This document shows, piece by piece, positions 2,749-25,004 of a stretch of 64,000 nt of DNA. How positions within the stretch are numbered: the stretch's first letter is position 1; each line of letters starts with the position of its first letter. The notes under the pieces are model-generated. The model searched no databases and was not told the DNA's origin. It worked only from the letters and a program-made list of their open reading frames with translations. The translations under genes and the position numbers were made by a program. Source of the DNA: Halopseudomonas sabulinigri (GTDB taxonomy: Bacteria; Pseudomonadota; Gammaproteobacteria; Pseudomonadales; Pseudomonadaceae); the NCBI RefSeq assembly GCF_900105255.1, contig NZ_LT629763.1, positions 2,542,001 to 2,606,000 of the forward strand, given 5' to 3'.

Positions 2749-3402
2749 ATGACCACCGCCACTGCCAAATCCAAGACCTACCGTCCCGGAAAGATTCGTG
2801 AGCGCAACCACGAGTTGATTCTGGCCGCAGCGGAGCAGGAATTTGCCCTGCACGGTTTTCGCGGCGCTACCATCCAAAACATTGCCGAACGTGCCGAACT
2901 ACCCAAATCGAACGTGCTGTATTACTTCAGCAACAAGAAGAAGATATATGCCGCCATGTTCGACGACATTCTTGCACGCTGGAACACCCTGTTCTCCAGC
3001 GTGACCGTCGACGACGATCCCGCCGAAGCGATCGCCGCCTTCATTCGTACCAAGGTGGAGACCTCAAGAACCCACCCGTTGGCCTCGCGCCTGTTCGCCA
3101 TGGAGATCATCCAGGGCGCGCCCTTTCTGATGACCCACCTGCGCACCAATATGCGCGAATGGGTGCGTGGCCGCGCCGGCGTGATGCAGCAATGGATCGA
3201 CCAGGGCCGCATGGCGCCGGTCGACCCGGTGCAGCTGATTTTCCTGATCTGGTCCTCGACGCAGCACTACTCCGACTTTCAGGTACAGATTCTGATGGTC
3301 GAGAACAAGGCCGAATACGAGCAGAAAGACTTTGACCACGCGGCCGACTTTCTCACCGAAGTAATACTGCGCGGCTGTGGCCTCGAGCCGCCGAAAAAAT
3401 GA
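2749..3402 (+). CDS. rutR: RutR-type TetR family repressor
   Basis: 217 residues. The N-terminal TetR helix-turn-helix (about residues 20-65, with ATIQNIAERAELPKSNVLYYF) is followed by a ligand domain very close to E. coli RutR. The shared blocks are SRTHPLASRLFAMEI, GAPFLM and the segment ending in STQHYSDF (YcdC_C type). E. coli RutR senses uracil/thymine and binds TTGACCA-N2-TGGTCAA (established knowledge). Several promoters between 12.8 and 21.9 kb carry that dyad, so this protein is the obvious candidate regulator of the distant cluster as well as its neighbours. No good copy of the box is visible directly upstream of this gene, so autoregulation is not supported. Confidence 0.85.
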   Translation: MTTATAKSKTYRPGKIRERNHELILAAAEQEFALHGFRGATIQNIAERAELPKSNVLYYFSNKKKIYAAMFDDILARWNTLFSSVTVDDDPAEAIAAFIRTKVETSRTHPLASRLFAMEIIQGAPFLMTHLRTNMREWVRGRAGVMQQWIDQGRMAPVDPVQLIFLIWSSTQHYSDFQVQILMVENKAEYEQKDFDHAADFLTEVILRGCGLEPPKK

Positions 3403-3545
3403 GCGGTGTGCGCCTTGCCGACGCGGCCCCGGTGGCAATCCGCCGGCGCTGCGGCGACAATGGCAACCCCATTACCCTAACCCAACCCTAGTGTTACAGC
3501 CGGACAGCCTCTGAGCCCGCCGCGCTCCTGACCGCCGAGGTACAG

Positions 3546-4892
3546 ATGAGCCAGTTTGCGCTGCGCGATGCAGCCATTTTCACCGTAGACCCCGATAACC
3601 GGGTCATTCCCCGTGGCACCCTGATCGTTGAGGACGGCCGCATCAGCGCCGTCGGCCCCAGCGATCAACTGATCATTCCGCCGGGTATCCCGACCATAGA
3701 CGCCAGCGGCCATGCGCTGCTGCCGGGGCTGATCGACGCCCATTCGCACTCCAGCCTGATGCGCGGGGTGACCGAGAACATGCAGCTGATGGACTGGCTG
3801 CCCTACTACCAGTTGGAGCACCGCGCGCTAACCGAGGAGTACGCCTATCACTCGGCCCGCCTGTGTTATCTGGAAGCGCTGAAGAGCGGCACCACCTGCG
3901 TGATGGACATGTACCGCTTCATGCACCGCTGCGCCGAGGCCGCGGACGAGGTCGGCATTCGGGTCAATCTCGCACCCTATGTGGCCGACGAAGCGGGCAA
4001 AGACTTTTTCGCCACCCGCGCCGAGAACCGCGCGCTGATCCACAGCCACCACGGCACCCAGAACGGTCGCATACAGGTGTGGATGGGCCTGGAGCATCTG
4101 TTCTACTGCACCCCCGACGCCTACCGCGAAGCGCTGGAGTGTCAGGCTGAATATGGTGTAGGCATCCACACCCACGCCTGCGAGCAAAAGGAAGAAGACG
4201 ACGCTGTCAGCGCGCATTTTGGCCGCCGCTCGATTGCCCAGCTGGATCATTACGGGATTCTCGGCGAACGCACCCTGCTGGCCCATTGCGTGTGGCTGAA
4301 CGACGACGAGATCAAGCGTATCGCCGATACCGGCACCAGCATCAGCCACTGCCCGATCAGCAACGCCAAACTAGCCAGCGGCGTGGCCCGCGTACCAGAG
4401 ATGCTCGCCGCCGGCATCACCGTCGGCCTGGGTACCGACGGCCCGGTATGCAACAACAGCCTGAGCCTGTTTGAGGAAATGAAGTTTGCCTCGCTGATTC
4501 AGAAAGCCACCCGGCTGGACGCCACCGTGCTGCCAGCCGATCAGATGCTGCGCATGGCCACCATCAACGGCGCACGCGCGCTGGGCCTGGGCGACCGCAT
4601 CGGCTCGCTGGAGGTCGGCAAGCAGGCCGACCTGTTGCTGCTGGATCTGGCCAGCCCCAACCTGACCCCAGCGGAACTGACCAACAGTGGCGGCAATCTA
4701 CTGTGGAACCTGGTATTTGCCGCCGGCACGCAGAATGTGGCCGCCGTGTGGGTCGATGGCCGCCAGCTGCTTGCCGATGGCCGCGCCACCCGCGTCAGCG
4801 AGGCCAGCCTGATCGCCGAAGCCCAGCAGCAGGGTCTGGCGCTATTTCAGCAGTGTCGCGATATCAGCCACCTGCGCACGTCCATGCTTTAA
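3546..4892 (+). CDS. Amidohydrolase of the MTA/SAH deaminase (TRZ/ATZ) family
   Basis: 448 residues forming a cyclic amidohydrolase barrel with all metal and catalytic residues: HSH at 66/68, HTHACE with His208 and Glu213, His247 in LLAHCVWL and Asp298 in GLGTDGPVCNN. The family hydrolytically deaminates aminated purines, nucleosides (5'-methylthioadenosine, S-adenosylhomocysteine) or triazines in the cytoplasm. It is followed 21 bases later by a 2OG oxygenase and preceded by the RutR-type gene, which points to a nucleobase or nucleoside derivative as substrate. It is a distant relative of the 8-oxoguanine deaminase at 11.4-12.8 kb and is likely to have a different specificity. The exact substrate is unknown. 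Confidence 0.82.
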   Translation: MSQFALRDAAIFTVDPDNRVIPRGTLIVEDGRISAVGPSDQLIIPPGIPTIDASGHALLPGLIDAHSHSSLMRGVTENMQLMDWLPYYQLEHRALTEEYAYHSARLCYLEALKSGTTCVMDMYRFMHRCAEAADEVGIRVNLAPYVADEAGKDFFATRAENRALIHSHHGTQNGRIQVWMGLEHLFYCTPDAYREALECQAEYGVGIHTHACEQKEEDDAVSAHFGRRSIAQLDHYGILGERTLLAHCVWLNDDEIKRIADTGTSISHCPISNAKLASGVARVPEMLAAGITVGLGTDGPVCNNSLSLFEEMKFASLIQKATRLDATVLPADQMLRMATINGARALGLGDRIGSLEVGKQADLLLLDLASPNLTPAELTNSGGNLLWNLVFAAGTQNVAAVWVDGRQLLADGRATRVSEASLIAEAQQQGLALFQQCRDISHLRTSML

Positions 4893-4913
4893 GGTCCTAC
4901 GGGAGTCCATACC

Positions 4914-5870
4914 ATGACCTCACTACCGATTATCTCCGTCGCCGGCCTGCGCAGCGACGACCCGGCTGTTCGCGCCGCCACCGCCGCCGAGCTGGGCAAG
5001 GCCTGCCGCGACGTCGGTTTTTTCTACGCCATCGACCACGGCATTCCCGAGGCCGTCATGAGCGGCGCGTTCGACAACGCCAAGACCTTCTTCGCCCTGC
5101 CGCTGGAAAGCAAGCAGGCGCTGTCGATCAAACTGTCACCGCATAACCGTGGCTACGTGGCCATGGCCGATGAAAAGCTCAATCCCGAGGCCGGCGCCGA
5201 CATGAAGGAAGCCTTCAACATCGGCACCGACTTTCCCGAGGATCACCCCGAGGTGGTCGCCGGCAAGCCGTTTCGCGGAGTGAATTTCTGGCCGCCGGTA
5301 GAGGGTTGGCGCAGCGCCATGCTGGGTTACTTTGACGCCTGCCTGGATCTTGGCCGGCTGATTCACCGCGGCTTCAGCATCGACCTGGGGCTGCGCGAAG
5401 ACTTCTTCGACGCGCACCTGCAAGAGCCCATCGCCACCCTGCGCATGCTGCGCTACCCGGCCAGCGCCGGTGAAATCACCCGTGAAGACGGCGGCGCCGG
5501 CGCGCACACCGATTACGGCAACGTTACCCTGCTGGCCACCGACAAGGTCGCCGGCCTGCAGGTGGCTACCCGCCAGGGCAACTGGATAGATGCGCCGCAC
5601 ATTCCTGGCGCCTTCGTCTGCAACATCGGCGACTGCCTGATGCGCTGGAGCAACGACACCTATGTCTCAACCCCGCACCGGGTCAAGCCGCCGGAGCAGG
5701 AGCGCTACTCGATTGCCTTCTTCCTGGAAGTCGATCCGGATGCCGTCGTCGACCCGCGCGACATAGTGCCGAACGAGCAGCCCAAGTACCCGCCGATTAC
5801 CTGCGCCGAGTACCTGACACACCGCCTGAACGCCACCTACGAGCACCGCACAGACGCTGACGCAATGTAA
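4914..5870 (+). CDS. 2OG-Fe(II) oxygenase, isopenicillin N synthase-like (copy 1)
   Basis: 318 residues with an N-terminal DIOX_N-type domain (GFFYAIDHG near 36-43) and a C-terminal jelly-roll core. The iron ligands are His198 and Asp200 (GAHTDYGNVTLL) and His255 (STPHRV). The RxS motif at Arg264/Ser266 that binds 2-oxoglutarate is present. Members oxidise small molecules using O2 and 2-oxoglutarate; eukaryotic thymine 7-hydroxylase belongs to this family. It is coupled to the upstream deaminase, so hydroxylation or oxidative demethylation of a modified base is plausible but inferred. It is one of three such oxygenases in the window, divergent enough to suggest different substrates. Confidence 0.85.
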   Translation: MTSLPIISVAGLRSDDPAVRAATAAELGKACRDVGFFYAIDHGIPEAVMSGAFDNAKTFFALPLESKQALSIKLSPHNRGYVAMADEKLNPEAGADMKEAFNIGTDFPEDHPEVVAGKPFRGVNFWPPVEGWRSAMLGYFDACLDLGRLIHRGFSIDLGLREDFFDAHLQEPIATLRMLRYPASAGEITREDGGAGAHTDYGNVTLLATDKVAGLQVATRQGNWIDAPHIPGAFVCNIGDCLMRWSNDTYVSTPHRVKPPEQERYSIAFFLEVDPDAVVDPRDIVPNEQPKYPPITCAEYLTHRLNATYEHRTDADAM

Positions 5871-11450: not shown

Positions 11451-12818
11451 TCACTTGCCTAACACCAACTCCCGCGCCAACCGATTATGTTCCTCAATAA
11501 TCAACGGAATCTCCCGCGTCAAAAGCCGCCCATCCTCAACTACCTGCCGCCCATTGATGATGCTGTGCGCCACCCGCTGCGGCGTGCAGAACACCAGCGC
11601 GGCCAGCGGATCAACCAGCGCACCCGCCATGGCGATGTCGTCGGTGCGGAAGGCGATGATGTCGGCGCAGTAACCGGGTTGAATACGACCCAGCATATCG
11701 GCACGGCCAAGTACTTCAGCGCCGCCACGGGTGGCGATAAACAAGGCTTCACGCGCACTCATGGCGCCGGGATCTTCATCCCGCACCCGCGCTGAGAGCA
11801 TCGCCTGACGAGTCTCGTCGAGCAGGTTGTTGGTGTCGTTGGAGGCGCTGCCGTCCACGCCCAGGCCAACCTTTACGCCAGCATCGCGCATCTTGCGGAT
11901 TGGCGCGATGCCGGAGGCCAGGCGCATGTTGGAGCAAGGGCAGTGGGCGACGCCGGTGCCGGTGCGGGCGAACAGGGCGATGCCCGGGTCATCCAGATGC
12001 ACGCAGTGGGCGTGCCATACGTCTGCCCCGACCCAGCCGACCGACTCGGTGTATTCGGTGGGGGTCATGCCATAGCGCTCCTTGCTGAAGGCAAGGTCCT
12101 TGGCGTTTTCGGCGGTGTGGGTGTGCAGGCCAACGCCGTAGGAGCGCGCCAAAGCAGCACCTTCGCGCATCAGGTCGGTGGTCACGGTGAAGGGTGAGCA
12201 GGGGCCGAGCGCGACCTTGATCATGGCGTCTGACGTGGCGTCGTGCAGCTCTTCCACGACCCGACGCATCTCGGTGAGGATCGCATCTTCATCCTGCTCG
12301 ACCAGTGCATCCGGCGGCAGCCCGCCCTTGCTCTGGCCCAGACTCATGGCGCCGCGCACGGCGTGAAAGCGCATACCCATTTCCTCGGCGGCCTGCACGC
12401 TGTCGTCCAGCCGGGTGCCGTTCACATACAGGTAGGCGTGATCCGCGGCCGTGGTGCACCCCGACAGCATCAGCTCGGCCATCGCGGTGCGGGTGGCAGC
12501 GCGCTGCATGGCCGGGGTGATGTTCTGCCAGACCGGGAAGAGGGCGGTGAGCCAGTCGAACAGCTCGGCATCCTGCGCGGCGGGCAGGGCACGGGTGAGC
12601 GACTGGAACATGTGGTGATGGGTGTTGATCAGGCCCGGAATCAGCACGTGACCGGTCATGTCGATGACCTTGTCAGCGGTGTCTGGCAGCTCACTGGCGG
12701 GGCCGACCGCTTCGACGCGGTTGCCGCGAATAAACACGGAGCCGTTGGCTATTTCACGTTGCTCGTCATCCAGGGTGGCGATGACCAGCGCGTTCTTGAG
12801 CAGCAGAGTGGGTGACAT
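11451..12818 (-). CDS. 8-oxoguanine deaminase
   Basis: 455 residues, with the start at the ATG of MSPTLLLKNALVIATL; the frame extends further upstream without a site. Amidohydrolase barrel with HHH at 67-69, HTHTAE (His232/234, Glu237), WHAHCVHLD (His269/271) and Asp322 in GLGVDGSASNDTNNL. The HHHMFQSLTRALP and GVDGSASND signatures match the Pseudomonas enzyme family that converts 8-oxoguanine to uric acid and ammonia (PA0142 type; established knowledge). It is divergent from an oxygenase/binding-protein operon, and the shared 335-base region contains sigma-54, NtrC-like and RutR-like elements. This is the strongest substrate clue for the cluster: purine-derived nitrogen. Confidence 0.85.
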   Translation of the reverse strand: MSPTLLLKNALVIATLDDEQREIANGSVFIRGNRVEAVGPASELPDTADKVIDMTGHVLIPGLINTHHHMFQSLTRALPAAQDAELFDWLTALFPVWQNITPAMQRAATRTAMAELMLSGCTTAADHAYLYVNGTRLDDSVQAAEEMGMRFHAVRGAMSLGQSKGGLPPDALVEQDEDAILTEMRRVVEELHDATSDAMIKVALGPCSPFTVTTDLMREGAALARSYGVGLHTHTAENAKDLAFSKERYGMTPTEYTESVGWVGADVWHAHCVHLDDPGIALFARTGTGVAHCPCSNMRLASGIAPIRKMRDAGVKVGLGVDGSASNDTNNLLDETRQAMLSARVRDEDPGAMSAREALFIATRGGAEVLGRADMLGRIQPGYCADIIAFRTDDIAMAGALVDPLAALVFCTPQRVAHSIINGRQVVEDGRLLTREIPLIIEEHNRLARELVLGK

Positions 12819-12843: not shown

Positions 12844-12857
12844 TGACCAGTGGGACA
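12844..12857 (-). promoter_or_regulatory. RutR-like box upstream of 8-oxoguanine deaminase (imperfect)
   Basis: TGACCA-GT-GGGACA: the left half is perfect and the right half has two mismatches to TGACCA-N2-TGGTCA. It lies 25 bases upstream of the start codon. Confidence 0.45.
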
Positions 12858-13005: not shown

Positions 13006-13022
13006 TTGGCACAGCCCTTGCT
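13006..13022 (+). promoter_or_regulatory. Sigma-54 (-24/-12) promoter
   Basis: TTGGCACA-GCCC-TTGCT, with the GG and GC doublets correctly spaced (10 bases between). It is placed about 130 bases before the oxygenase start and would give a transcription start near 13033. Confidence 0.7.
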
Positions 13023-13129: not shown

Positions 13130-13154
13130 CATGTACCCGCAACAGGAGACACTG

Positions 13155-14102: not shown

Positions 14103-15092
14103 ATGCAACAAAGAGGATTGAAACTCACCGCCCTGGCGCTTGCCCTGGGCTTCAGCGCCGCGAGCGCAAGCGCTGCCGACCTGACGCCTATCACCGTCAC
14201 CACCACCTGGTATGCCCAGGCCGAACACGGTGGGCTGTACGCCGCCAAGGCCGCCGGCATCTACGAGCAACACGGGCTGGATGTGACCATCAAGATGGGC
14301 GGACCGCAGGTGAACAACGTGCAGTTGCTGATGGCCGGCAAGACCGACTTCAGCATGGGCTATGCGCTGCAGTCGCTGAACGCGGTCAAGCAGGATATCC
14401 CCATGGTCACGGTCGCGGCCTGGTTCCAGAAAGACCCGCAGACGCTGATCGTGCACGAGGGCGCCGGAGTCGACACCTTGGCCGACCTGGAAGGCAAGGG
14501 CATTCGCATGCCCACCGCCGGCCGGGTTGCCTACTGGCCCTGGATGAAAGCCGAATTTGGCTATAGTGACGATCAGCTACGTCCCTACGATTACAGCTTG
14601 GGGCCGTTTATCGCTGACCCCGAGGCGGTGCAGCAGGGCTACATCACCAACGATGGCTACTTTCTCGACAAGGCCGGTGTGAAGGGCAAGAGCCTGCTGC
14701 TAGCGGACTTTGGTTGGGGCGCTTACTCCTGCACGCTGGACGTCACGCAGAAGATGGTGGATGAGAATCCCGAGGTGGTGCAGGCGATGGTAATGGCTAC
14801 CGCCGAGGGCTGGGCCGCCTACTTCAAGGACCCCGCGCCGGCGAATGCGCTGATCAAGCAGGATAACCCCGAGATGCAGGACGACCTGCTGGCCTACAGC
14901 ATCGCCAAGCTGCAGGAAGACAATATTCTGCTGGCCGGCGATGCCGAGGGTGGAAAATACGGCAACATGACCGAGGCGCACTGGCAGTCGTTCTTCGACG
15001 ATATGGTCAAGGCCGAGACCTTGCCGGCGGATCTGGAGTGGCAGAAGGCCTTTGATCTGACCTTCGTCAAGGCTCTGTACGGCGCGGAGTAA
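14103..15092 (+). CDS. NMT1/ThiY-like periplasmic binding protein (orphan)
   Basis: 329 residues with a signal peptide (cleavage near ASA-ADLTP, about residue 25). The mature N-terminus TTTWYAQAEHGGLYAAKAAG and the GGPQVNNVQLLMAGKTDF segment are the NMT1/THI5-like fold, used for pyrimidine precursors, sulfonates and similar ligands. It is clearly paralogous to the protein at 17903 (same WFAQ/WYAQAEHGG and MGGPQVN blocks). It has no ATPase or permease of its own, so it may feed the transporter encoded at 18993-20680. Co-transcription with an oxygenase suggests it delivers that enzyme's substrate. Confidence 0.82.
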   Translation: MQQRGLKLTALALALGFSAASASAADLTPITVTTTWYAQAEHGGLYAAKAAGIYEQHGLDVTIKMGGPQVNNVQLLMAGKTDFSMGYALQSLNAVKQDIPMVTVAAWFQKDPQTLIVHEGAGVDTLADLEGKGIRMPTAGRVAYWPWMKAEFGYSDDQLRPYDYSLGPFIADPEAVQQGYITNDGYFLDKAGVKGKSLLLADFGWGAYSCTLDVTQKMVDENPEVVQAMVMATAEGWAAYFKDPAPANALIKQDNPEMQDDLLAYSIAKLQEDNILLAGDAEGGKYGNMTEAHWQSFFDDMVKAETLPADLEWQKAFDLTFVKALYGAE

Positions 15093-15171: not shown

Positions 15172-15173
15172 GT

Positions 15174-15917
15174 TTAGCTGGCGAACGCCAGCAGCGCATC
15201 GGCAACCGCATCGGTCGCCACCACCTGCGGGACGTGCCCACAATCCAGGCTGACCACCTCGGCCCCCGGCACCAGCAGCTGCATGCGCCGCTGTACCGGC
15301 AGGACGACTGACCTGTCCTGGGTGGCCTCGATATACAGACGCGGCAGGCGGCCAAAGCGCTCCGGCGTCCATTCAGCCACCAGCGCGCGGGTGCCTTCCG
15401 GCTGGGCGCAAAACAGCTGCGCCGCCGCCATTGCCTGCTCACGCGGCAAGTCCTGCAAAAATACCTCGCAGACCGTCTCGGCGGGCACGCTGGACCATTG
15501 GCGATCCTCGCTCCAGCGCAGATAGGGCCAGATACCGACGGCCTCGGGGTGAGTCTTTTGCGCTTCTGCGGCCAGCTCGGCAAAACCCAGGCCGCTGGGC
15601 AGCATCATGCCGGCAATGTAGGCGACGCCCGCCACTCGCTCGGCCAGTGCCTCGGCTGCCTGGGTGGCAATCACGCCGCCGCCGGAATGCCCGACGATCA
15701 GCAGCGGTCCGCTGACACCGGCGCAGCTGTCTTCCACCGCACGCAAGCAGCCCGCCATGGTGATTTGCTCGGGCGTGGCGGGGTTACGCGAGTTGCCTGG
15801 CATATCCGGGGTGACCACGTTGTGGCCCTGGCCTTGCAGCACAGCGCGCAGACTGTCCCAAACCCAGCTGCCAGCCCAGGCGCCGTGAATCAGGACGAAG
15901 GTGGGCTGCTCAGACAT
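15174..15917 (-). CDS. Alpha/beta hydrolase of the AB_hydrolase_6 / methylesterase-like type
   Basis: 247 residues from an ATG with GGAGG close upstream. The oxyanion/early motif VLIHGAWAGSWVW, the nucleophile elbow GHSGGG (about residue 76-81) and a C-terminal histidine in SLDCGHVPQ give a complete Ser-His-acid triad type. Relatives include plant methylesterase-like hydrolases and bacterial esterases of unknown substrate. It overlaps the end of oxygenase copy 3 by 8 bases, so the two are co-translated and probably act on successive intermediates. The substrate is unknown. Confidence 0.8.
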   Translation of the reverse strand: MSEQPTFVLIHGAWAGSWVWDSLRAVLQGQGHNVVTPDMPGNSRNPATPEQITMAGCLRAVEDSCAGVSGPLLIVGHSGGGVIATQAAEALAERVAGVAYIAGMMLPSGLGFAELAAEAQKTHPEAVGIWPYLRWSEDRQWSSVPAETVCEVFLQDLPREQAMAAAQLFCAQPEGTRALVAEWTPERFGRLPRLYIEATQDRSVVLPVQRRMQLLVPGAEVVSLDCGHVPQVVATDAVADALLAFAS

Positions 15918-16881
15918 AGGTCCTCCGGTACATATCCTGCAGGTGCTGTTCGACCGTGGTGGCCGGGTACTTGGGCGACTCACCCGCCGCCAGACAAACC
16001 GGCAGGCAGCGCACCTCGTGTTCGGGAGCGCCACTGTAGAAGAAGGGCACCGAATAGCGCTCGGCGCCAGAGGTGTTCACCACCCGGTGCAGGGTGGAGC
16101 GGTAGCGGTCGTTGGTCCAGCGCGCGATCATGTCGCCCAGATTGACCACAAAGGTACCGGGGATCGGCGGCGCATCCATCCAGCGTTCACCCTTGGCATC
16201 CCACACTTGCAGGCCGGGCTTGTCATCCAGCAGCAATATGGTGATGCCGCCAAAGTCGGTATGCGCGCCGCAGCCCTTTTCACCGGGCAGGGGTTTGGCC
16301 GGTTGCGGCGGGTAGTGCAGCAAGCGCAGGGTGCACAACGGCTCATGGCAGAAATCGGCGAAGAAGTCTTCCGGCAGCTGCAACGACAGCGCCAGCCCGG
16401 CCATGATCCGCTCACTCAGCGTCAGCATGGCGTCGTAGTAACCCTGCATCGCCGGGCGGAACGCAGGCAGCTCGACCGGCCACTGATTCGGCCCTTGATT
16501 GAAGCGCCCGGCCAGCACCCGCGGGTGATCCTCGGCCAGTTCTTCACCGATATAGAAGCCCTCCTTCAGGTCCGGCGGCATACCCGGCTCCAGCGTTTGC
16601 CCGCCGAGCTTTTCATAGCCGCGGTTGGCCTTGGATTGCGCCTTGTCGGTCTGCAGCTTGGTCGCCATGGGCTGGGCAAAGAAGGCCTGCGATTGCACAA
16701 TAACACGCTGAATCAGCGCCGGATCAATGCCATGGCCGCTGATATAGAAAAACCCGGTGTGCTCGCAGGCCTCGCGCAGGGCGCGACCTACTGCCGCCTT
16801 GGCCTCGGCCGAAGCGGCGAACAGCGCGCTCAGGTCGATGATCGGCAGGCCGTGTGCCGGGGATGATTGCTGTGCCGCCAT
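15910..16881 (-). CDS. 2OG-Fe(II) oxygenase, isopenicillin N synthase-like (copy 3)
   Basis: 323 residues from the ATG that begins MAAQQSSPAHG; upstream in-frame codons lie in the regulatory region. Iron ligands are His207/Asp209 (GAHTDFGGITILL) and His265 (STLHRV), with Arg275-x-Ser277 (RYSVPFF). GFFYISGHGID at 43-53 marks the N-terminal domain. It is divergent from the WrbA-like gene across a region with a RutR-like box, and overlaps the downstream hydrolase. It shares the family with the copies at 4914 and 13155 but has its own insertions (LEPGMPPDLKEGF region). The three may act on different oxidation steps or bases. Confidence 0.85.
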   Translation of the reverse strand: MAAQQSSPAHGLPIIDLSALFAASAEAKAAVGRALREACEHTGFFYISGHGIDPALIQRVIVQSQAFFAQPMATKLQTDKAQSKANRGYEKLGGQTLEPGMPPDLKEGFYIGEELAEDHPRVLAGRFNQGPNQWPVELPAFRPAMQGYYDAMLTLSERIMAGLALSLQLPEDFFADFCHEPLCTLRLLHYPPQPAKPLPGEKGCGAHTDFGGITILLLDDKPGLQVWDAKGERWMDAPPIPGTFVVNLGDMIARWTNDRYRSTLHRVVNTSGAERYSVPFFYSGAPEHEVRCLPVCLAAGESPKYPATTVEQHLQDMYRRTYV

Positions 16882-16932: not shown

Positions 16933-16946
16933 TGTCCAGCTGGTCA
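16933..16946. promoter_or_regulatory. RutR-like box between divergent oxygenase and flavoprotein genes
   Basis: TGTCCA-GC-TGGTCA followed by GG, one mismatch to the RutR dyad. It lies 52 bases upstream of one start codon and 89 bases upstream of the other, so it could control both directions. No convincing sigma-54 element was found here. Confidence 0.6.
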
Positions 16947-17788: not shown

Positions 17789-17802
17789 TGACCAATTGAT
17801 CA
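17789..17802 (+). promoter_or_regulatory. RutR-like box
   Basis: TGACCA-AT-TGATCA followed by GG: one mismatch to TGACCA-N2-TGGTCA, and the best left half in the window. It lies between the NtrC-like sites and the sigma-54 promoter. A weaker half-site (TGAATA-AA-TGGTCA) covers the predicted transcription start at 17862-17875. Confidence 0.6.
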
Positions 17803-17832: not shown

Positions 17833-17848
17833 TGGCACGCTGCTTGCT
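17833..17848 (+). promoter_or_regulatory. Sigma-54 (-24/-12) promoter
   Basis: TGGCACG-CTGC-TTGCT is an exact match to the consensus TGGCACG-N4-TTGCW. It drives the binding protein, ATPase, permease and exporter genes. Confidence 0.82.
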
Positions 17849-17902
17849 CTCCAGAAAATATTGAATAAATGGTCAGCTAATAAAATCCACTGGAGTATGA
17901 AT

Positions 17903-18925
17903 ATGCGCGACACACGTAAGCCCCTGATCTCCTCCGCCAAACGCAGCCTGTCACTGCTGGCCGGTTCGCTGGCGGTGGCCGGCAGTCTTTCATCACCTGC
18001 CATGGCAGCCGATCTGGACGAAGTGGTGTTTGGTACCAACTGGTTCGCCCAGGCCGAGCATGGCGGTTTCTATCAGGCCAAGGCCACCGGGATTTATGAA
18101 AAGTACGGTCTGGATGTCTCCATCGAAATGGGCGGCCCGCAGGTCAATGGCATGCAGTTGCTGGTGGCCGGCAAGCGCGACTTTTCCATGGGCTACCCGA
18201 TCGGCAACATCAAGGCGGTGGAAGAGGGTCTGCCGGTAAAAACCGTGGCCGCGGCCTTTCAGGGTGACCCCCAGGCGCTGATCGCCCACCCCAACATCAC
18301 CTCGCTGGAGCAGATCAAGGAAGAGGGCCTGCCGGTGTACATCGCCGCCTTCGCCAACACCACCTTCTGGCCCTGGCTGAAGTCCAAGTATGGCTACACC
18401 GATGACATGATTCGCCCCTATACCTTCAGCGTGGCGCCCTTCTTGGCTGACGACAGCATCGTGCAGCAGGGCTACCTCTCGTCCGAGCCCTTTGCGATGG
18501 AAAAAGCCGGTGTGAAGCCGTCTGTCTTCCTGCTCGCCGACTACGGCTACCCGGCCTACGCCACCACCATCGAAACCACCGACAAGATGATCGAGGAAAA
18601 TCCTGATCTGGTGCGCCGCTTTGTACAGGCCAGCATGGAAGGCTGGGCGAGCTACTTCAACGACCCGGCACCGGGCAACGAGCTGATTCAGGAAGCCAAC
18701 CCGGAAATGACCGATGAGCAGATCGCCTACGGCATCGAGAAGATGAAGGAATACGGTCTGGTCACCGGCGGCGACGCAACCAGCGGCGGCATTGGCGTGA
18801 TGACCGATGCGCGCTGGGCCAAGATCCGCGAGTTCATGCTGACTGCCGGTCTGGTGGACAAGGACCTGGACATCAACGACGTCTACAGCCTCGACTTCCT
18901 GCCCAAGGAGCCGGTGCTGCCCTGA
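17903..18925 (+). CDS. NMT1/ThiY-like periplasmic binding protein of an ABC importer
   Basis: 340 residues. The second of two close ATGs is preferred because GGAG lies 7 bases before it. A long signal peptide ends near AMA-ADLDE (about residue 33). The mature protein begins VVFGTNWFAQAEHGGFYQAKATG, the NMT1/THI5-like fold, and carries MGGPQVNGMQLLVAGKRDF. It is followed by its ATPase and permease in one operon. Related proteins bind pyrimidine or thiamine-precursor-like rings, so a nucleobase-type ligand is likely given the neighbouring deaminases and RutR-like box. The ligand itself is inferred. Confidence 0.85.
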   Translation: MRDTRKPLISSAKRSLSLLAGSLAVAGSLSSPAMAADLDEVVFGTNWFAQAEHGGFYQAKATGIYEKYGLDVSIEMGGPQVNGMQLLVAGKRDFSMGYPIGNIKAVEEGLPVKTVAAAFQGDPQALIAHPNITSLEQIKEEGLPVYIAAFANTTFWPWLKSKYGYTDDMIRPYTFSVAPFLADDSIVQQGYLSSEPFAMEKAGVKPSVFLLADYGYPAYATTIETTDKMIEENPDLVRRFVQASMEGWASYFNDPAPGNELIQEANPEMTDEQIAYGIEKMKEYGLVTGGDATSGGIGVMTDARWAKIREFMLTAGLVDKDLDINDVYSLDFLPKEPVLP

Positions 18926-18992: not shown

Positions 18993-19880
18993 ATGACCTC
19001 TTCCAGAGTCACCCCCCTGAAACCCAGCAATCCGGTGCCCGCCGATGAGCCAAGCGCCAAGGCCGGCAGCAGCAACGGTCGCCCGGTGCTGCAGGTGGAA
19101 GGCGTGAACAAGATCTACGCCAACGGCACGGTCGCGCTCAAGGGCGCGGATCTGACCGTACGCCAGGGCGAATTCGTCAGCCTGCTGGGGCCCTCCGGCT
19201 GCGGCAAGAGTACCCTGCTGCGCATCATGGCCGGACTGGGCGATGTGACCACCGGCAGCGTCAAGTTCTGGGAACAGGACTACGACGTCGTCGGCGACAA
19301 GGGCCGCAAGCTGGCCTTCGTGTTTCAGAACGCCACCCTGATGCCTTGGGCACGGGTACGCAAGAATGTGCGCCTGCCGCTGGATCTGGAGCACCAGAGC
19401 GGCCCGGCGACCGAGCAGAAGATCGACCAGGCGCTGGAGATGGTCGGCCTCAAGGGTTTCGACAACGCCTTCCCGCGCGAGCTGTCCGGCGGTATGCAGA
19501 TGCGTGCCTCGATTGCCCGCGCCATGGTCACCGAGCCAAACCTGTTGCTGATGGATGAACCCTTCGGCGCGCTGGACGAGATGACCCGCAACAAACTCAA
19601 CGATGACGTGCTCAAACTGTGGCAGAAAAACGGCTGGACCATCGTCTTCGTCACCCACAGCGTTTATGAGGCGGTGTATCTATCAAGCCGCGTGGTGGTG
19701 ATGGCGGCGCGCCCCGGGCGCATCGTCGACGACATCAAGATCGACCAACCCTTCCCGCGCAATGCCGATTTCCGCGTCTCTACCGAGTTTGCCGGTTATT
19801 GCCGTCAGGTCTCACAGGCACTGGAGCGCGCCAGCGCCATGGGCGCAAGCACGGGTGCAACGCAGGAGAAATCGGCATGA
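18993..19880 (+). CDS. ABC importer ATPase (SsuB/ThiZ-like)
   Basis: 295 residues with a low-complexity N-terminal extension of about 30 residues. Walker A GPSGCGKST is at about 66-74, followed by a Q-loop (VFQNATLMPW), the ABC signature LSGGMQ, Walker B LLLMDEPFGALDE and the switch histidine (FVTHS). It powers the permease encoded next, whose ATG overlaps this stop in an ATGA arrangement. The subfamily serves taurine, sulfonate, nitrate and pyrimidine-precursor importers. Its partner binding protein is directly upstream. Confidence 0.9.
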   Translation: MTSSRVTPLKPSNPVPADEPSAKAGSSNGRPVLQVEGVNKIYANGTVALKGADLTVRQGEFVSLLGPSGCGKSTLLRIMAGLGDVTTGSVKFWEQDYDVVGDKGRKLAFVFQNATLMPWARVRKNVRLPLDLEHQSGPATEQKIDQALEMVGLKGFDNAFPRELSGGMQMRASIARAMVTEPNLLLMDEPFGALDEMTRNKLNDDVLKLWQKNGWTIVFVTHSVYEAVYLSSRVVVMAARPGRIVDDIKIDQPFPRNADFRVSTEFAGYCRQVSQALERASAMGASTGATQEKSA

Positions 19881-20680
19881 AAGCGCCGCTGATTCAGAAC
19901 GAAAACTTCGTCAAGATCGCCGCGCCGCTGGTGGTGGGCGTGTTCTTTCTGCTGTTCTGGCAGATCGCCGTGGTGGCCTTTGAAATGCCCAAGTACATAC
20001 TGCCGGGGCCAATCGAGATCATGAAATCGCTGGTCACCGACTGGGCCACCCTGCTCAACGCGCTGATGATGACGCTGAAGATCACCCTGCTGGCCTTCGT
20101 GATTGCCGTGGTGCTGGGCGTCGCCGCCTCCCTGCTGTTTATCCAGAGCAAGTGGATCGAGCTGAGTCTGTTCCCCTACGCGGTACTGCTGCAGGTGACG
20201 CCGGTGGTGGCTATTGCCCCGCTGATTATCATCTGGGTCGATGACACCACCTGGGCGCTGACCGTGTGTGCGGTGATCATTGCCATCTTCCCGATCATTT
20301 CCAACACCACCCTGGGCCTGCGCAGCGTTGATCCCAACCTGCTCAGCATGTTCCGCATGTACCGCACCAGCCGCTGGCAGGAGCTGACCCGGCTGCGCAT
20401 CCCCGGCGCGTTGCCGTACTTCTTTGGCGGGCTGCGGATCAGCTGCGGTCTGGCACTGATTGGCGCCGTGGTAGCGGAATTTGTCGCCGGCACCGGCGGC
20501 GCCAAGGCCGGCCTCGCCTACCTGATTCTGCAATCGGGCTACAACCTGCAGATTCCGCGCATGTTTGCCGCGCTGGTACTGATTACCCTGACCGGTATTG
20601 CGCTGTTCGCGCTGATGGTCTGGCTGTCTGACCGCGCCCTGCGCAACTGGCACGAGAGCGCGCTGGAAGTGGAACATTGA
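19877..20680 (+). CDS. ABC importer permease (SsuC/ThiX-like)
   Basis: 267 residues with about six membrane helices. The cytoplasmic EAA-type coupling loop (MYRTSRWQELTRLRIPGALPYFFGG region) is intact. Translation is coupled to the ATPase by a 4-base ATGA overlap and to the exporter that follows by a similar overlap. It forms the inner-membrane channel of the importer served by the binding protein at 17903, and perhaps also the orphan one at 14103. Confidence 0.9.
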   Translation: MKAPLIQNENFVKIAAPLVVGVFFLLFWQIAVVAFEMPKYILPGPIEIMKSLVTDWATLLNALMMTLKITLLAFVIAVVLGVAASLLFIQSKWIELSLFPYAVLLQVTPVVAIAPLIIIWVDDTTWALTVCAVIIAIFPIISNTTLGLRSVDPNLLSMFRMYRTSRWQELTRLRIPGALPYFFGGLRISCGLALIGAVVAEFVAGTGGAKAGLAYLILQSGYNLQIPRMFAALVLITLTGIALFALMVWLSDRALRNWHESALEVEH

Positions 20681-21627
20681 GCCGCATCAACCCAGCCACG
20701 CAGCGCTATTCCTTTGGCCTGGGTTACCTGCTGCTGGGCTTTACGGCACTGGCCTGGGGGTTGAACTTCCCGATCCTCAAGCTGGGGCTGGAAAACAGCC
20801 CACCGCTGCTGTTCACCGCCATGCGCATGGCGCTGGGCGCGATCACCATGTTCAGCATCGCCGCAGCCATGGGCATTCTGCGCCTGCCGCCGCGCGCCGA
20901 TTGGCCGGTGCTGTTCTCGGTCGGTGTATTGCAGAACATGGCGTTCATCTCTTTGGTGACCCTGGGGCTGCAGTTTCTGCCCGCCGGACGGGCGGCGATC
21001 CTCGCCTATACCACGCCGATCTGGGTGGTGCCGGCGGCGGCGCTGTTCCTGGGGGAGCGCTTTACCGCACCACGCGCATTGGGCGTGGGCCTGGGGCTGG
21101 CGGGTCTGCTGACGGTATTCAACCCGCTGTCGCTGGGTTGGGATGATCCCAAGGTGTTCATTGGCGGCGGCCTTATCATGCTCGCCACCCTGGTCTGGAC
21201 GGTGGGGTTGATCCACGTGCGCAAGCACCACTGGCAGGGCGACGTGCTGTCGCTGATCCCCTGGCAGGTGCTGGTGTCGGTGGTGGTACTCACGCCCTTC
21301 GCGCTCTTCTTTGAGGACCCGCGCGCAATTATCTGGGAGCCGGCGTTCGCCTGGCAGCTGGTTTTCAGCGGTGCGGTGGCCTCCGGCCTTTGTGTCGCGG
21401 CGCAGGTAGCGGCGATCCGCTCGCTGCCGGCAGTGAGCCTCTCGGTCAGCTCGGCGGCAGTGCCGGCGGTAGGGCTGCTCACCTCCAGTCTGTTTCTGCA
21501 CGAACAGGCTACCCATACCGACCTGGTGGGCTTTGCGCTGATAGCCGGGGGCATTCTGGTAGTCGGCCTGGGCGATCGGCGACAGGCGCTGCGCACGCGG
21601 CGCGAGGCCGAAACCACCGGCAGCTGA
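20677..21627 (+). CDS. DMT-superfamily (EamA) transporter
   Basis: 316 residues starting at a TTG that overlaps the permease stop (ATTGA), so it is translationally coupled. Ten hydrophobic segments are arranged as two EamA repeats, with the typical ALAWGLNFPILKLGL start and ALFLGERFTAPRALGVGLGLAG end of the first repeat. Such proteins usually export metabolites across the inner membrane. Placed at the end of an importer operon, it may expel a toxic or unused product of the imported compound. The substrate is unknown. Confidence 0.85.
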   Translation: MSRINPATQRYSFGLGYLLLGFTALAWGLNFPILKLGLENSPPLLFTAMRMALGAITMFSIAAAMGILRLPPRADWPVLFSVGVLQNMAFISLVTLGLQFLPAGRAAILAYTTPIWVVPAAALFLGERFTAPRALGVGLGLAGLLTVFNPLSLGWDDPKVFIGGGLIMLATLVWTVGLIHVRKHHWQGDVLSLIPWQVLVSVVVLTPFALFFEDPRAIIWEPAFAWQLVFSGAVASGLCVAAQVAAIRSLPAVSLSVSSAAVPAVGLLTSSLFLHEQATHTDLVGFALIAGGILVVGLGDRRQALRTRREAETTGS

Positions 21628-21635
21628 GGCGCCAG

Positions 21636-21676: not shown

Positions 21677-21680
21677 CGGC

Positions 21681-21820: not shown

Positions 21821-21836
21821 CTTCATCACTAAAACC

Positions 21837-21850
21837 TGCCCAAGTGGTCA
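21837..21850 (+). promoter_or_regulatory. RutR-like box overlapping the predicted transcription start
   Basis: TGCCCA-AG-TGGTCA followed by GG: one mismatch to the RutR dyad, with a perfect right half. It lies at about +6 relative to the sigma-54 promoter, the same geometry as at 13034. Confidence 0.6.
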
Positions 21851-21890
21851 GGATATAAAGCCAAACACTAAACCCCTGTGGAGAAAGACT

Positions 21891-22886: not shown

Positions 22887-22889
22887 CAC

Positions 22890-23675
22890 ATGGAGCACAC
22901 TAGCGAACGCGCCTTTGTGCGGATGGCGGGAGTGGGTCATCGCTACGACCCCACCCCCGGCAGTCCGATGGCGGTGCAGAACATCGACCTCGACATCAAC
23001 CGCCACGAGTTTGTGGCGGTGGTGGGCCCCTCCGGCTGCGGCAAGAGTACCTTGCTGCGCATGGTGTCCGGCCTGTTGGTGCCGAGCGAGGGTGAAGTCA
23101 GCGTATTCGGCAAGCAGGTCAACGGCCCCCGTGACGACGTTGGCATCGTGTTTCAAAAGCCGACCCTGCTGCCGTGGCTGAGCGTTCGCAAGAATGTGCT
23201 CTTTCCGCTCAAGCACAAGTTTGGCCGCTATGGCGCGCAGGATGAAAAGCGCGCCAACGAGTTGCTGGCCATGGCTGGGCTCGAGGCCTTTGCCGACAAG
23301 ATGCCGGACGAGTTGTCCGGCGGCATGCAACAGCGTGTGGGCATTGTCCGCGCGCTGCTGCTCAATCCCGACATTCTGCTGATGGACGAACCATTCTCCG
23401 CACTGGATGCCATGACCCGTGAACAGATCGGTTTCGATCTGCTGAAAATCTGGGACGAACAGCCCAAGACGGTGCTGTTCATCACCCACTCGATTTCCGA
23501 AGCCGTATTGCTGGCCGACCGCGTATTGGTCATGAGCAAGCGACCCGGCAGTGTGCTGGACCTGATAGAAGTAGACCTGCCGCGCCCGCGCAGCCCCGAG
23601 ACCATCAAACATCCCCGCTTCAGCGAGCTGACTGACCGCATAAGGAAACATATCTATGAGCCAGACGCCCACTGA
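22890..23675 (+). CDS. ABC importer ATPase (TauB/SsuB-like)
   Basis: 261 residues with Walker A GPSGCGKST at about 47-55, a Q-loop (VFQKPTLLPW), signature LSGGMQQRVGIV, Walker B ILLMDEPFSALD and switch histidine (FITHS). It overlaps the permease gene by 20 bases. It energises the importer using the preceding binding protein. The C-terminal tail (VDLPRPRSPE) is the usual taurine/nitrate-type end of this subfamily. Confidence 0.9.
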   Translation: MEHTSERAFVRMAGVGHRYDPTPGSPMAVQNIDLDINRHEFVAVVGPSGCGKSTLLRMVSGLLVPSEGEVSVFGKQVNGPRDDVGIVFQKPTLLPWLSVRKNVLFPLKHKFGRYGAQDEKRANELLAMAGLEAFADKMPDELSGGMQQRVGIVRALLLNPDILLMDEPFSALDAMTREQIGFDLLKIWDEQPKTVLFITHSISEAVLLADRVLVMSKRPGSVLDLIEVDLPRPRSPETIKHPRFSELTDRIRKHIYEPDAH

Positions 23676-24447
23676 CGCCGCCGCGCGCCGCGCGCTGCTG
23701 TTGAACCTCTCGCCCTGGCTATTCTTTGTGGGCTTGATCGTGCTCTGGGAGGTGGTTTGCCGCGTCTTCGAGCTGCCGACCTACGTATTGCCGGCACCCT
23801 CGGCGATTTTCAGCGCCTTTTTCGACGTTGAATTCAGCCGCTGGATGATGCATCTGTGGGCTACGCTGCGCGTGGCGCTGATGGGCTTTGCGCTGTCGAT
23901 CGTGATCGCCATTCCGTTGGCCATTGCCATGATGCGCTCGGAGTTTCTCTCGCGCACCCTCTACCCGCTGCTGGTGGTGATCCAGTCCACGCCGGTGGTC
24001 GCGGTCGCGCCGCTGATCATCGTCATGATGGGCTCGGACGATCCCTCGCGCGTGCTGATTACCTGCCTGCTGACCTTCTTCCCGCTGGTGGTCTCTACCG
24101 CCACCGGGATCAACGAGACGCCGGGAGAACTGATCGAGCTGAGCCGCTCGCTGGATGCACCGACCCGCCGCGAAACCTGGCAGATCCGCATTCCCTACGC
24201 GATTCCGCACATCTTCAGCGGCCTCAAGGTAGCGATCACCTTGGCGATCATCGGCGCCGTGGTGGCCGAGTTTGTCGCCGCCGAAGAAGGGCTCGGCTAT
24301 TTCATCCAGTTCTCGACCTCGTTCTTCAAGATTCCGCAGGCCTTTGCCGGTCTGTTCTTCCTCGCCATTGTCAGCCTGCTGCTGTTCAAGTCGGTGCAAT
24401 GGACCCAGCAGATCTTCTTCGCCTGGAGCCTGCCGAAGAAAAAATAA
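23656..24447 (+). CDS. ABC importer permease (TauC/SsuC-like)
   Basis: 263 residues with about six transmembrane segments. The EAA-type loop (LDAPTRRETWQIRIPYAIPHIF) couples it to the ATPase. It begins 20 bases inside the ATPase gene, with a plausible ribosome-binding site in the coding sequence (AAGGAAA). It completes the second importer; a terminator-like hairpin follows before the deaminase gene. Confidence 0.9.
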   Translation: MSQTPTDAAARRALLLNLSPWLFFVGLIVLWEVVCRVFELPTYVLPAPSAIFSAFFDVEFSRWMMHLWATLRVALMGFALSIVIAIPLAIAMMRSEFLSRTLYPLLVVIQSTPVVAVAPLIIVMMGSDDPSRVLITCLLTFFPLVVSTATGINETPGELIELSRSLDAPTRRETWQIRIPYAIPHIFSGLKVAITLAIIGAVVAEFVAAEEGLGYFIQFSTSFFKIPQAFAGLFFLAIVSLLLFKSVQWTQQIFFAWSLPKKK

Positions 24448-24453
24448 GTCGCT

Positions 24454-24479
24454 GCCGGGCATTACAAACACTGCCCGGC
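24454..24479 (+). terminator. Hairpin after the second importer
   Basis: GCCGGGCA / TGCCCGGC stem with a 10-base loop, just after the permease stop. It may attenuate rather than fully separate the deaminase gene. Confidence 0.55.
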
Positions 24480-24521
24480 CACGCCCTACATCCAGCAATA
24501 GATGCAACAAGGACCATTTTT

Positions 24522-25004
24522 GTGAGCCATACCGAACGCGACATCCACTTTCTGCGTGACAGCTTCCGCCTGGCCGAACAAGCCGCCGAGCAGGGCATCC
24601 ACCCCTTCGCTGCCATCCTCGTCGATGCCGACGGCAAGGTGCTGATGGAGCAGCTCAACGCTTTCCTGCCCGATCACGACATGACCGGCCACGCCGAGCG
24701 GGTGCTGATGACCCGCGCCAACACCACTTACTCACCAGAAGTGCTGGCCGGCTGCACCATGTACACCTCCGCCGAGCCCTGCGCCATGTGCGCCGGCGCG
24801 GTGTACTGGGCCGGCGTTGGCCGCGTGGTCTACGGCGCCAGCGAAAAGCGCCTGAAAGAACTCACCGGCAACCACCCGGAAAACCCCACCCTGGATCTGC
24901 CCTGCCGCACCGTGTTCGAGTCCGGTCAGCGCAAGGTCGAGGTGGTTGGCCCGCTACTGGAAGAAGAATCCGCCCAGGTGCACTTCGAGTTCTGGAAAGA
25001 CTGA
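24522..25004 (+). CDS. Nucleobase/nucleoside deaminase (guanine deaminase GuaD / TadA-like fold)
   Basis: 160 residues from a GTG with AAGGA 8 bases upstream. It has the zinc cytidine-deaminase-fold motifs HAE (GHAERVLM) and PCxxC (EPCAMCAG). The family includes Bacillus-type guanine deaminase, cytosine deaminase and tRNA adenosine deaminase; the length and the isolated HAE/PCAMC pattern fit a free-base deaminase. Placed at the end of the importer series, it probably releases ammonia from an imported base. Guanine, cytosine or isoguanine-like substrates are all possible. Confidence 0.82.
   Translation: MSHTERDIHFLRDSFRLAEQAAEQGIHPFAAILVDADGKVLMEQLNAFLPDHDMTGHAERVLMTRANTTYSPEVLAGCTMYTSAEPCAMCAGAVYWAGVGRVVYGASEKRLKELTGNHPENPTLDLPCRTVFESGQRKVEVVGPLLEEESAQVHFEFWKD

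What the first reader, a model, noticed from the sequence alone, without database searches (positions are those of the whole stretch)
2749..25004. A RutR-like, sigma-54/NtrC-type regulon for modified nucleobases built from oxygenases rather than Rut/Pyd enzymes
A clear RutR homologue, a nucleoside importer and pore, three 2OG oxygenases, 8-oxoguanine deaminase, another amidohydrolase, a CDA-fold deaminase, a WrbA-like flavoprotein, a hydrolase and three NMT1-type binding proteins occur together. No rutA-G or pydAB gene is visible. The combination suggests import, oxidation (possibly demethylation) and deamination of modified or oxidised bases as a nitrogen source. To my knowledge this pathway as a whole has no described form.
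Basis: partly seen in the sequence, partly recalled or inferred. Interest (0 to 1): 0.9.

Follow-up and report, generated by a model that had tools for sequence, protein, structure and literature searches.

The report
Purine regulon with thymine-hydroxylase-like oxygenases
A Pseudomonas-related bacterium seems to widen ordinary purine breakdown with extra importers, deaminases and iron enzymes resembling a fungal thymine-oxidising enzyme, partly under one shared DNA switch, which hints at an undescribed way to use chemically modified nucleobases as nitrogen.

Summary
The listed genes are real, but form two blocks (about 1-5870 and 11451-25004) with unrelated genes between. The regulon is real: of 4096 palindromic 6-2-6 half-sites, TGACCA (recalled E. 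coli RutR half-site) is uniquely best, in 5 of 12 promoter regions here versus 0 of 15 controls, and in 18 of 22 versus 6 of 70 in congeners. At sbp2, sbp3 and a distant chemoreceptor gene, the box starts 29-34 nt after a sigma-54-like element. Just outside the window lies the classical purine operon xdhABC-uraD-uraH-guaD-puuD. A rutA cluster with its own RutR exists elsewhere. The oxygenases resemble fungal thymine-7-hydroxylase; oxyB shows 41% identity, TM 0.88, and keeps the base-binding residues except N294. In two other lineages, related modules carry Rieske enzymes; the one tested is closest to methylxanthine N1-demethylase. Most likely, modified purines are imported, oxidised or demethylated, deaminated and fed to urate. 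The purine regulon is well supported; substrates and NtrC control are not shown. Cyanobacterial oxyB relatives mostly lack purine neighbours, which weighs against a strict purine role.

The parts
49..936 (+). nupP1, nucleoside-type ABC permease
   Evidence: BPD_transp_2, 150 bits; its ATPase is outside the window at L059:8318
938..1864 (+). nupP2, nucleoside-type ABC permease
   Evidence: BPD_transp_2, 120.4 bits
1932..2678 (+). possible outer-membrane nucleoside channel (tsx-like)
   Evidence: DUF5020, 24.1 bits, below the cut-off 36.7; syntenic in congeners
2749..3402 (+). RutR-family TetR repressor, paralogue of the RutR next to rutA
   Evidence: TetR_C_3 173.9 bits; 193.5 bits against the RutR cut-off 368; 3loc E 5.3e-41
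3546..4892 (+). amdA, TRZ/ATZ-type amidohydrolase, probable purine or adenosine-type deaminase
   Evidence: Amidohydro_1; best NCBIfam 5'-deoxyadenosine deaminase, below cut-off; best PDB 4f0r MTA/SAH deaminase
4914..5870 (+). oxyA, T7H-like 2OG-Fe(II) oxygenase
   Evidence: DIOX_N and 2OG-FeII_Oxy; T7H residues N87, E122, R190, Y217, F292 kept
11451..12818 (-). oxoGD, 8-oxoguanine deaminase
   Evidence: NF006055, 675 bits, above the cut-off 532
12844..12857 (.). RutR-type box upstream of oxoGD
   Evidence: 2 mismatches to TGACCANNTGGTCA; boxes in the same intergenic region of congeners
13007..13022 (+). sigma-54 -24/-12 element upstream of oxyB
   Evidence: TGGCACN5TTGCT, no mismatch; no box at up to 2 mismatches within 150 bp
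13131..14078 (+). oxyB, closest to fungal thymine-7-hydroxylase
   Evidence: 5c3p E 8.8e-64; model pLDDT 89.1; 41% identity, TM 0.88
14103..15092 (+). sbp1, NMT1/ThiY-type binding protein without its own ATPase or permease
   Evidence: NMT1 118.9 bits; Foldseek ranks 3ix1 and 4nmy first
15174..15917 (-). alpha/beta hydrolase
   Evidence: sub-threshold hits to PcaD, BioH and other alpha/beta hydrolases
15910..16881 (-). oxyC, T7H-like 2OG-Fe(II) oxygenase
   Evidence: T7H residues kept with Y217F
16933..16946 (.). RutR-type box between oxyC and wrbA
   Evidence: 1 mismatch; with one flanking base each side one of only two perfect CTGNCCANNTGGTCAG sites in the genome
17035..17691 (+). WrbA-type NAD(P)H:quinone oxidoreductase
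   Evidence: 150.3 bits, above the cut-off 141
17789..17802 (.). distal RutR-type box of sbp2
   Evidence: 1 mismatch
17833..17848 (+). sigma-54 -24/-12 element of sbp2
   Evidence: no mismatch
17862..17875 (.). proximal RutR-type box of sbp2, 29 nt after the sigma-54 element
   Evidence: 2 mismatches; 29 nt spacing in 7 of 7 promoters examined
17897..18925 (+). sbp2, NMT1-type binding protein
19035..19880 (+). atp1, ABC ATPase
19877..20680 (+). perm1, ABC permease
20677..21627 (+). EamA-type transporter
   Evidence: EamA 122.3 bits
21805..21820 (+). sigma-54-like element of sbp3
   Evidence: TGGCCCN5TTGCT, 1 mismatch; 31-32 nt before the box in 6 of 6 promoters examined
21837..21850 (.). RutR-type box of sbp3
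   Evidence: 1 mismatch; the other perfect CTGNCCANNTGGTCAG site of the genome
21921..22886 (+). sbp3, NMT1/ThiY-type binding protein
   Evidence: NMT1 149 bits; best PDB 4nmy E 8.1e-22 and 3ix1
22890..23675 (+). atp2, ABC ATPase
23656..24447 (+). perm2, ABC permease
24522..25004 (+). cda, CDA-fold nucleobase-type deaminase
   Evidence: dCMP_cyt_deam_1 68.1 bits; best PDB 8wlw and 5xkq mycobacterial-type deaminases, then TadA and guanine deaminases

Best explanation
This is a purine-scavenging regulon. A RutR-family repressor binds CTGACCA-N2-TGGTCAG-type boxes at the promoters of the xanthine/urate operon and nucleoside importer, of oxoGD, of oxyC and wrbA, and of two NMT1-type importers. At the sbp2 and sbp3 promoters the box lies just downstream of a sigma-54 element, where it could block transcription until a nucleobase is present. 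The modules widen the diet to modified bases. Binding-protein importers bring in bases; T7H-type 2OG oxygenases oxidise an exocyclic methyl group (or a ring carbon); the deaminases remove the amino group; the product enters xanthine -> urate -> ureido intermediates -> urea. Shown by sequence: gene content, boxes, sigma-54 elements, synteny, T7H-like fold and residues. Inferred: that the window's RutR paralogue is the protein that binds, the order of steps, demethylation, purine substrates, and nitrogen control.
For: Box enrichment and conservation without prior choice of motif. The six non-regulon hits can be matched to xdh/nup (3), BMP (1), oxyE/oxoGD2-like (1) and rutR-oxyD (1) promoters. 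Spacing of sigma-54 element to box: 29 nt in 7 of 7 sbp2 and 31-32 nt in 6 of 6 sbp3 promoters examined. Box at ureD in 6 of 9 congeners (five with 1 mismatch, one with 3) and sigma-54 plus box at a NIT-domain chemoreceptor in 6 of 6 genomes that have it. Adjacent xdhABC-uraD-uraH-guaD-puuD. T7H fold and residues. Each of the five T7H-like genes located in this genome lies in a base-catabolic setting: oxyA next to amdA, oxyB divergent from oxoGD, oxyE divergent from oxoGD2, oxyD in the rut cluster, oxyC in the same cluster as the others. In other genera oxyC lies in one run with abhyd-sbp3-atp2-perm2-cda, and a T7H-like gene with BMP and an adenosine-deaminase-family gene. NdmA-like Rieske genes lie next to oxyB/oxoGD2 or sbp2. 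Nucleobase markers occur in 9 of 12 far stretches whose oxygenase is at least 50% identical, against 1 of 20 random stretches.
Against: No substrate was tested. oxyB keeps thymine-binding residues, which would also suit a pyrimidine. Over all 40 far stretches only 12 carry a marker, so the wider oxygenase family has other roles; I chose the markers, and L121 and L122 are one genome. Of 30 cyanobacterial loci with oxyB relatives (48-61% identity) only 2 show nucleoside-importer genes, and the one neighbour tested is an FAD oxidoreductase. No NtrC-type box near the cluster. Of 13 strict sigma-54 sites in the genome only 2 have a box within 150 bp, and the oxyB one does not. No box at up to 2 mismatches directly upstream of tsx, rutR, amdA, atp1 or cda. 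The related cluster of G734 shows no such boxes near these genes and carries GntR and LysR regulators. No NdmA-like gene in this genome, only a fragment match at E 5.4e-5.
Confidence: 0.5

Rival explanations
1. OxyB is a true bacterial thymine (or 5-methylcytosine) hydroxylase, and the cluster feeds pyrimidines to the rut pathway elsewhere in the genome.
For: 41% identity to N. crassa T7H and conserved N87, E122, R190, Y217, F292. Binding proteins resemble pyrimidine (FAMP/thiamin) binders. A rutA cluster exists in the genome. 8-oxoguanine deaminases also deaminate isocytosine (PMC6186785, passages).
Against: The neighbours are purine enzymes. No PF04909 (iso-orotate decarboxylase-type) match lies near the oxygenases (this family is broad). 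The rut cluster has its own T7H-like oxygenase, in which N87 is V.
Confidence: 0.2
2. The oxygenases hydroxylate ring carbon C8 rather than methyl groups: guanine -> 8-oxoguanine (OxyB) -> urate (oxoGD), a molybdenum-free bypass of xanthine dehydrogenase.
For: oxyB is divergent from oxoGD in all 8 congeners whose stretch I fetched, and a related oxoGD2 lies beside oxyB in other genera. 8-oxoguanine to urate is a known reaction of this deaminase family (PMC6186785, passages).
Against: The nearest structure oxidises a methyl group. The genome keeps xdhABC and guaD. The C8-hydroxylating fungal XanA is of another 2OG family (recalled).
Confidence: 0.15
3. The modules handle non-nucleobase N-heterocycles or alkylated amines (pterins, s-triazines, thiamin pyrimidines), and lie next to purine genes because the end products are shared.
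For: TRZ/ATZ-type amidohydrolase. Promiscuity of the AtzB/8-oxoguanine-deaminase cluster (PMC13054789, sections 7 and 8). ThiY-like binding proteins. FAD oxidoreductase next to oxyB in a cyanobacterium.
Against: Shared box with xdh and the nucleoside importer; 8-oxoguanine deaminase above its cut-off.
Confidence: 0.12

Closest known systems
Classical bacterial purine catabolism (xdhABC, guaD, puuD, uraH, uraD)
   Same: Complete operon divergent from the nup importer just left of the window, sharing the box
   Different: Added T7H-type oxygenases, NMT1-type importers, CDA-fold and 8-oxoguanine deaminases
RutR regulon / rut pyrimidine pathway of E. coli
   Same: RutR-family repressor and TGACCA half-site (half-site recalled)
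   Different: The regulator is a paralogue below the RutR cut-off; targets are purine genes; the rutA cluster is elsewhere with its own RutR paralogue
Fungal thymine-7-hydroxylase (5c3p-5c3s; PMC4787775)
   Same: Fold, Fe and 2OG ligands, N87, E122, R190, Y217, F292
   Different: Bacterial, N294H in oxyB, purine setting; activity unknown
Caffeine N-demethylase NdmA (6ick)
   Same: NdmA-like Rieske genes lie with the related modules in G734 and G176
   Different: Not present in this genome; the 2OG oxygenases are unrelated to Rieske enzymes
N2,N2-dimethylguanine hydrolases and 8-oxoguanine deaminase (PMC13054789)
   Same: Same amidohydrolase cluster as oxoGD and probably oxoGD2, acting on modified guanines
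   Different: That paper (outline, passages and sections 7-8 seen) assigns no operon; here importers, oxygenases and a shared box are added

Membership tests
RutR (TIGR03613) | score above the equivalog cut-off of 368 bits | tested here: not met
   193.5 bits
RutR (TIGR03613) | TetR_C_3 effector domain and best structural relative RutR | tested here: met
RutR (TIGR03613) | TGACCANNTGGTCA operator at target promoters | tested here: met
   that this protein is the binder was not tested
Rut pathway | rutA next to the regulator | tested here: not met
   rutA is at G000:C1:739679, next to another RutR paralogue
Thymine-7-hydroxylase | Fe/2OG residues and base sandwich (R190, Y217, F292, N87) | tested here: met
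   oxyB; oxyC has Y217F
Thymine-7-hydroxylase | oxidation of thymine to 5-carboxyuracil | not testable with these tools
   needs enzyme assay
8-oxoguanine deaminase (NF006055) | score above the curated cut-off | tested here: met
   675 against 532 bits
5'-deoxyadenosine deaminase (NF005557), for amdA | score above the curated cut-off | tested here: not met
   362.1 against 522 bits
Aliphatic sulfonate binding proteins (TIGR01728), for sbp1-3 | score above the curated cut-off 163.5 | tested here: not met
   41.9, 29.6 and 87.9 bits
Purine catabolic cluster | xdhABC, uraH, uraD, guaD above cut-offs and a urate oxidase | tested here: met
   (outside the window, L059)
Sigma-54 promoters | TGGCAC-N5-TTGCW | tested here: met
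   13007 and 17833; 21805 with one mismatch
NtrC regulon | NtrC-type palindrome upstream | tested here: not met
   no hit in the cluster with the recalled consensus at up to 1 mismatch; weaker sites not excluded

The most novel reading that the evidence does not exclude
Bacteria possess a family of 2OG-Fe(II) nucleobase oxygenases, several specialised paralogues per genome, each coupled to a deaminase or base-catabolic module, that strips methyl groups from (or hydroxylates) modified purines from DNA and RNA turnover and feeds them to urate. This would be a free-base counterpart of AlkB/TET chemistry used for nutrition, gated by a RutR paralogue and sigma-54.
Probability: 0.35. Interest if true: 0.85.

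Novelty: new variant of a known kind. Interest (0 to 1): 0.68.

Why it matters
Where modified bases from RNA and DNA turnover go in the environment is poorly known. If the model holds, bacteria demethylate or oxidise free modified bases with a dedicated oxygenase family and use them as nitrogen. The cluster names concrete enzymes, importers and promoters to test, and it would give functions to oxygenases for which no NCBIfam model matched and which Pfam places only in broad superfamilies. The apparent double gate, sigma-54 plus a RutR-type box just downstream, is a testable promoter design.

Tried and rejected
Sulfonate transport: rejected; SsuA-family scores are below cut-off and the nearest structures bind FAMP or thiamin. 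Guanidine or other riboswitch control: no Rfam match at gathering score in 1-30000. Reductive pyrimidine route (pyd): the best dihydropyrimidinase-type match in the own genome is 73.7 bits against a cut-off of 393.25. Thymine salvage by iso-orotate decarboxylase: PF04909 matches exist in the genome, but none near the oxygenases. NtrC box: none in the cluster. One coherent operon: rejected, because 5906-11450 is unrelated. Testing oxoGD2 as a dimethylguanine hydrolase by residue counting was inconclusive and dropped. Literature searches that gave nothing on this pathway in the held open-access library; some searches gave the three papers I looked into. That Msmeg-type CDA deaminases act on O6-methylguanine and isoguanine, that P. 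aeruginosa PA0142 and PA0147-0148 are related genes, and the E. coli RutR and NtrC consensus sequences, are recalled and come from no call. PubMed library only; subscription papers were not searched.

Full report
What is in the window. Gene calls and Pfam/NCBIfam scans confirm the listed families. They lie in two blocks. Block A: nupP1-nupP2-tsx-like-rutR-amdA-oxyA (49-5870). Block B: oxoGD (minus strand), oxyB-sbp1, abhyd and oxyC (minus strand), wrbA, sbp2-atp1-perm1-eamA, sbp3-atp2-perm2-cda (11451-25004). Between them lie MsrB, a GST, a channel-like protein and an HTH protein.

What lies outside. The window is G000:C1:2542001-2606000. Immediately to the left (L059), divergent from the nucleoside ATPase gene, is xdhA-xdhB-xdhC-uraD-uraH-guaD, each above its NCBIfam cut-off, then a Urate_ox_N protein (puuD-type). 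The genome also holds rutA (706.5 bits, cut-off 498.3) next to a second RutR paralogue. In that region, L102 shows rutR, a T7H-like oxygenase (oxyD), a glyoxalase-fold protein, a BMP binding protein and nucleoside ABC genes divergent from rutA and the following genes (rutC-F are named by position only). A fifth T7H-like gene, oxyE, is divergent from an amidohydrolase, oxoGD2 (37.9% identical to oxoGD), in L112. One search reports five matches in this genome; the fifth is not printed there, and I take it to be oxyE.

Conservation. Among the 32 congeners shown, 11 carry an oxyB orthologue at 70% identity or more. In the 8 congeners whose stretches I fetched, oxoGD, oxyB and sbp1 keep their order in 8 of 8 (an extra oxyA-like gene lies between oxoGD and oxyB in some). 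sbp1-abhyd-oxyC-wrbA is present in 7 of 8. Record titles of identical contigs name congeners as Pseudomonas neustonica, Halopseudomonas xinjiangensis and H. sabulinigri, so the genus is most likely Halopseudomonas. In genus g15 (two stretches, L052 and L053) a run rutR-LysR-oxyC-abhyd-sbp3-atp2-perm2-cda is followed by nucleoside importer genes. In three other-genus stretches (L054, L056, L058) the order is BMP-oxygenase-adenosine-deaminase-family gene.

The regulon. The E. coli RutR operator (recalled as TTGACCANNTGGTCAA) matches 8 times at up to 3 mismatches against 1.74 expected. Without choosing a motif, I scored all 4096 palindromic 6-2-6 half-sites at up to 2 mismatches: TGACCA is alone at the top with 5 of 12 promoter regions of the cluster plus L059 and 0 of 15 regions from the rest of the window; the next best reach 3. 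In 11 congener stretches it is again first, with 18 of 22 regulon regions and 6 of 70 others; the runner-up reaches 10. The six others correspond, to xdh/nup (3), BMP (1), oxyE/oxoGD2-like (1) and rutR-oxyD (1) promoters. Three further hits in the window lie inside genes (sbp1, 33084, 55297). Genome-wide, CTGNCCANNTGGTCAG at up to 2 mismatches gives 229 strand hits against 105 for the reversed control, and its only two perfect sites are in this cluster; that pattern was drawn from these sites, so it is descriptive. Of the 1-mismatch sites fetched around, the intergenic ones I took up are at a NIT-domain chemoreceptor (with sigma-54), at ureD and at an acyl-CoA dehydrogenase gene; others fall inside or far from gene starts. 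The ureD box recurs in 6 of 9 congeners and in 0 of 3 g15 genomes; the chemoreceptor box plus sigma-54 recurs in 6 of 6 genomes with the gene, at 24-34 nt spacing. In promoters where a box had been found, the sigma-54-like element precedes it by 29 nt in 7 of 7 (sbp2) and 31-32 nt in 6 of 6 (sbp3); wrbA, oxyC, oxoGD, nup and xdhA show no such element nearby. Of 13 strict sigma-54 sites in the genome, 2 have a box within 150 bp. No NtrC-type palindrome was found in the cluster. The rut promoters of the genome carry a variant with the same core, read by eye at rutA and at 2 mismatches before oxyD, so the two RutR paralogues might share sites.

The oxygenases. oxyB matches N. crassa T7H over its full length (E 8.8e-64); the model (mean pLDDT 89.1) ranks eleven T7H chains first in Foldseek, 41% identity and TM 0.88. 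From passages of PMC4787775 the residues N87, E122, R190, Y194, H214, D216, Y217, H271, R286, S288, F292 and N294 bind metal, 2OG or base. oxyB keeps all but N294 (H). oxyA and oxyC also keep N87, E122, R190 and F292 (oxyC has Y217F). oxyD has V at 87, and the BMP/ADA-linked type has H. N88 of oxyB (T7H N87) is invariant over the 23 rows of alignment A1. For oxyA and oxyC the nearest structures are 6jyv and 9ovh, with T7H further down.

Distribution. Searches of 369 class-level and 398 phylum-level genomes gave 21 and 63 with a match at E 1e-40 or better. I fetched 40 stretches, a part of those hits, mostly the better ones, and 20 random control stretches. Nucleobase markers occur in 9 of 12 stretches whose best oxygenase is at least 50% identical to a reference, in 12 of 40 overall, in 1 of 20 controls and in 1 of 22 other stretches of the own genome. 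I chose the markers, and L121 and L122 are neighbours in one genome. In G734 the modules are mixed with puuD, uraH, guaD, an OHCU decarboxylase, a polysaccharide-deacetylase-fold gene and two Rieske oxygenases with VanA_C domain. The one tested is closest to methylxanthine N1-demethylase NdmA (E 8.9e-39); the other G734 copy is 48% and a G176 gene beside sbp2 45% identical to it; the own genome has only a fragment match at E 5.4e-5. Against a strict purine role, 30 cyanobacterial loci hold oxyB relatives (48-61% identity) and only 2 of them show nucleoside-importer genes; the downstream gene tested in one is an FAD oxidoreductase.

Mechanism. The most economical reading is that modified purines and nucleosides enter by the BMP/nup and ThiY-like importers, oxygenases oxidise the modification, deaminases remove nitrogen, and xanthine dehydrogenase and urate enzymes finish. 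PMC13054789 (sections 7, 8) shows that relatives of oxoGD hydrolyse N2,N2-dimethylguanine to xanthine and lists other alkyl-base deaminases; PMC6186785 (passages) shows 8-oxoguanine and isocytosine deamination by the same family. I place this at 0.5, the thymine rival at 0.2, C8 hydroxylation at 0.15 and unrelated heterocycles at 0.12.

Novelty. None of the searches found a description of this combination in the held open-access library; that is no proof of absence elsewhere. I rate it a new variant of a known kind: purine catabolism and a RutR-type switch are known, the oxygenase modules are not described in what I could search.

Noticed in passing
25146-31096: AraC regulator divergent from FMO-like monooxygenase, SBF transporter, epimerase, SDR and TauE-type genes, syntenic next to cda in several congeners; looks like a separate catabolic operon.
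   Followed up: no
6485-7189: Glutathione S-transferase-family gene after oxyA; kept after oxyA in G134 (L039) but not in most fetched congeners. A GST-like partner is known in caffeine demethylation (recalled).
   Followed up: partly
9312-9614: Small HTH_3 protein that reads like a HigA-type antitoxin (reading from the sequence); no toxin partner was looked for.
   Followed up: no
43694-54001: Run of three histidine kinases (one of 1495 aa with PAS and GAF domains) followed by a GGDEF response regulator with Hpt domain.
   Followed up: no
L061:1337-3334 (G000:C1:191336): NIT-domain chemoreceptor gene with sigma-54 element and RutR-type box in 6 of 6 genomes that have it: possible chemotaxis towards nucleobases in the same regulon.
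   Followed up: partly
L104:4326-5183 (G000:C1:1085328): ureD promoter with box in 6 of 9 congeners and sigma-54-like element at -52/-55 in 8 of 9, linking urease to the regulon.
   Followed up: partly
L170-L199: Cyanobacteria, mostly Nostocales, hold oxyB relatives at 48-61% identity, often followed by a gene of about 1.1 kb; in L196 this is a DAO-family FAD oxidoreductase. Function unexplained.
   Followed up: partly
L112:13585: A 2-mismatch RutR-type box 82 bases before the start of a BMP binding-protein gene in the own genome.
   Followed up: no
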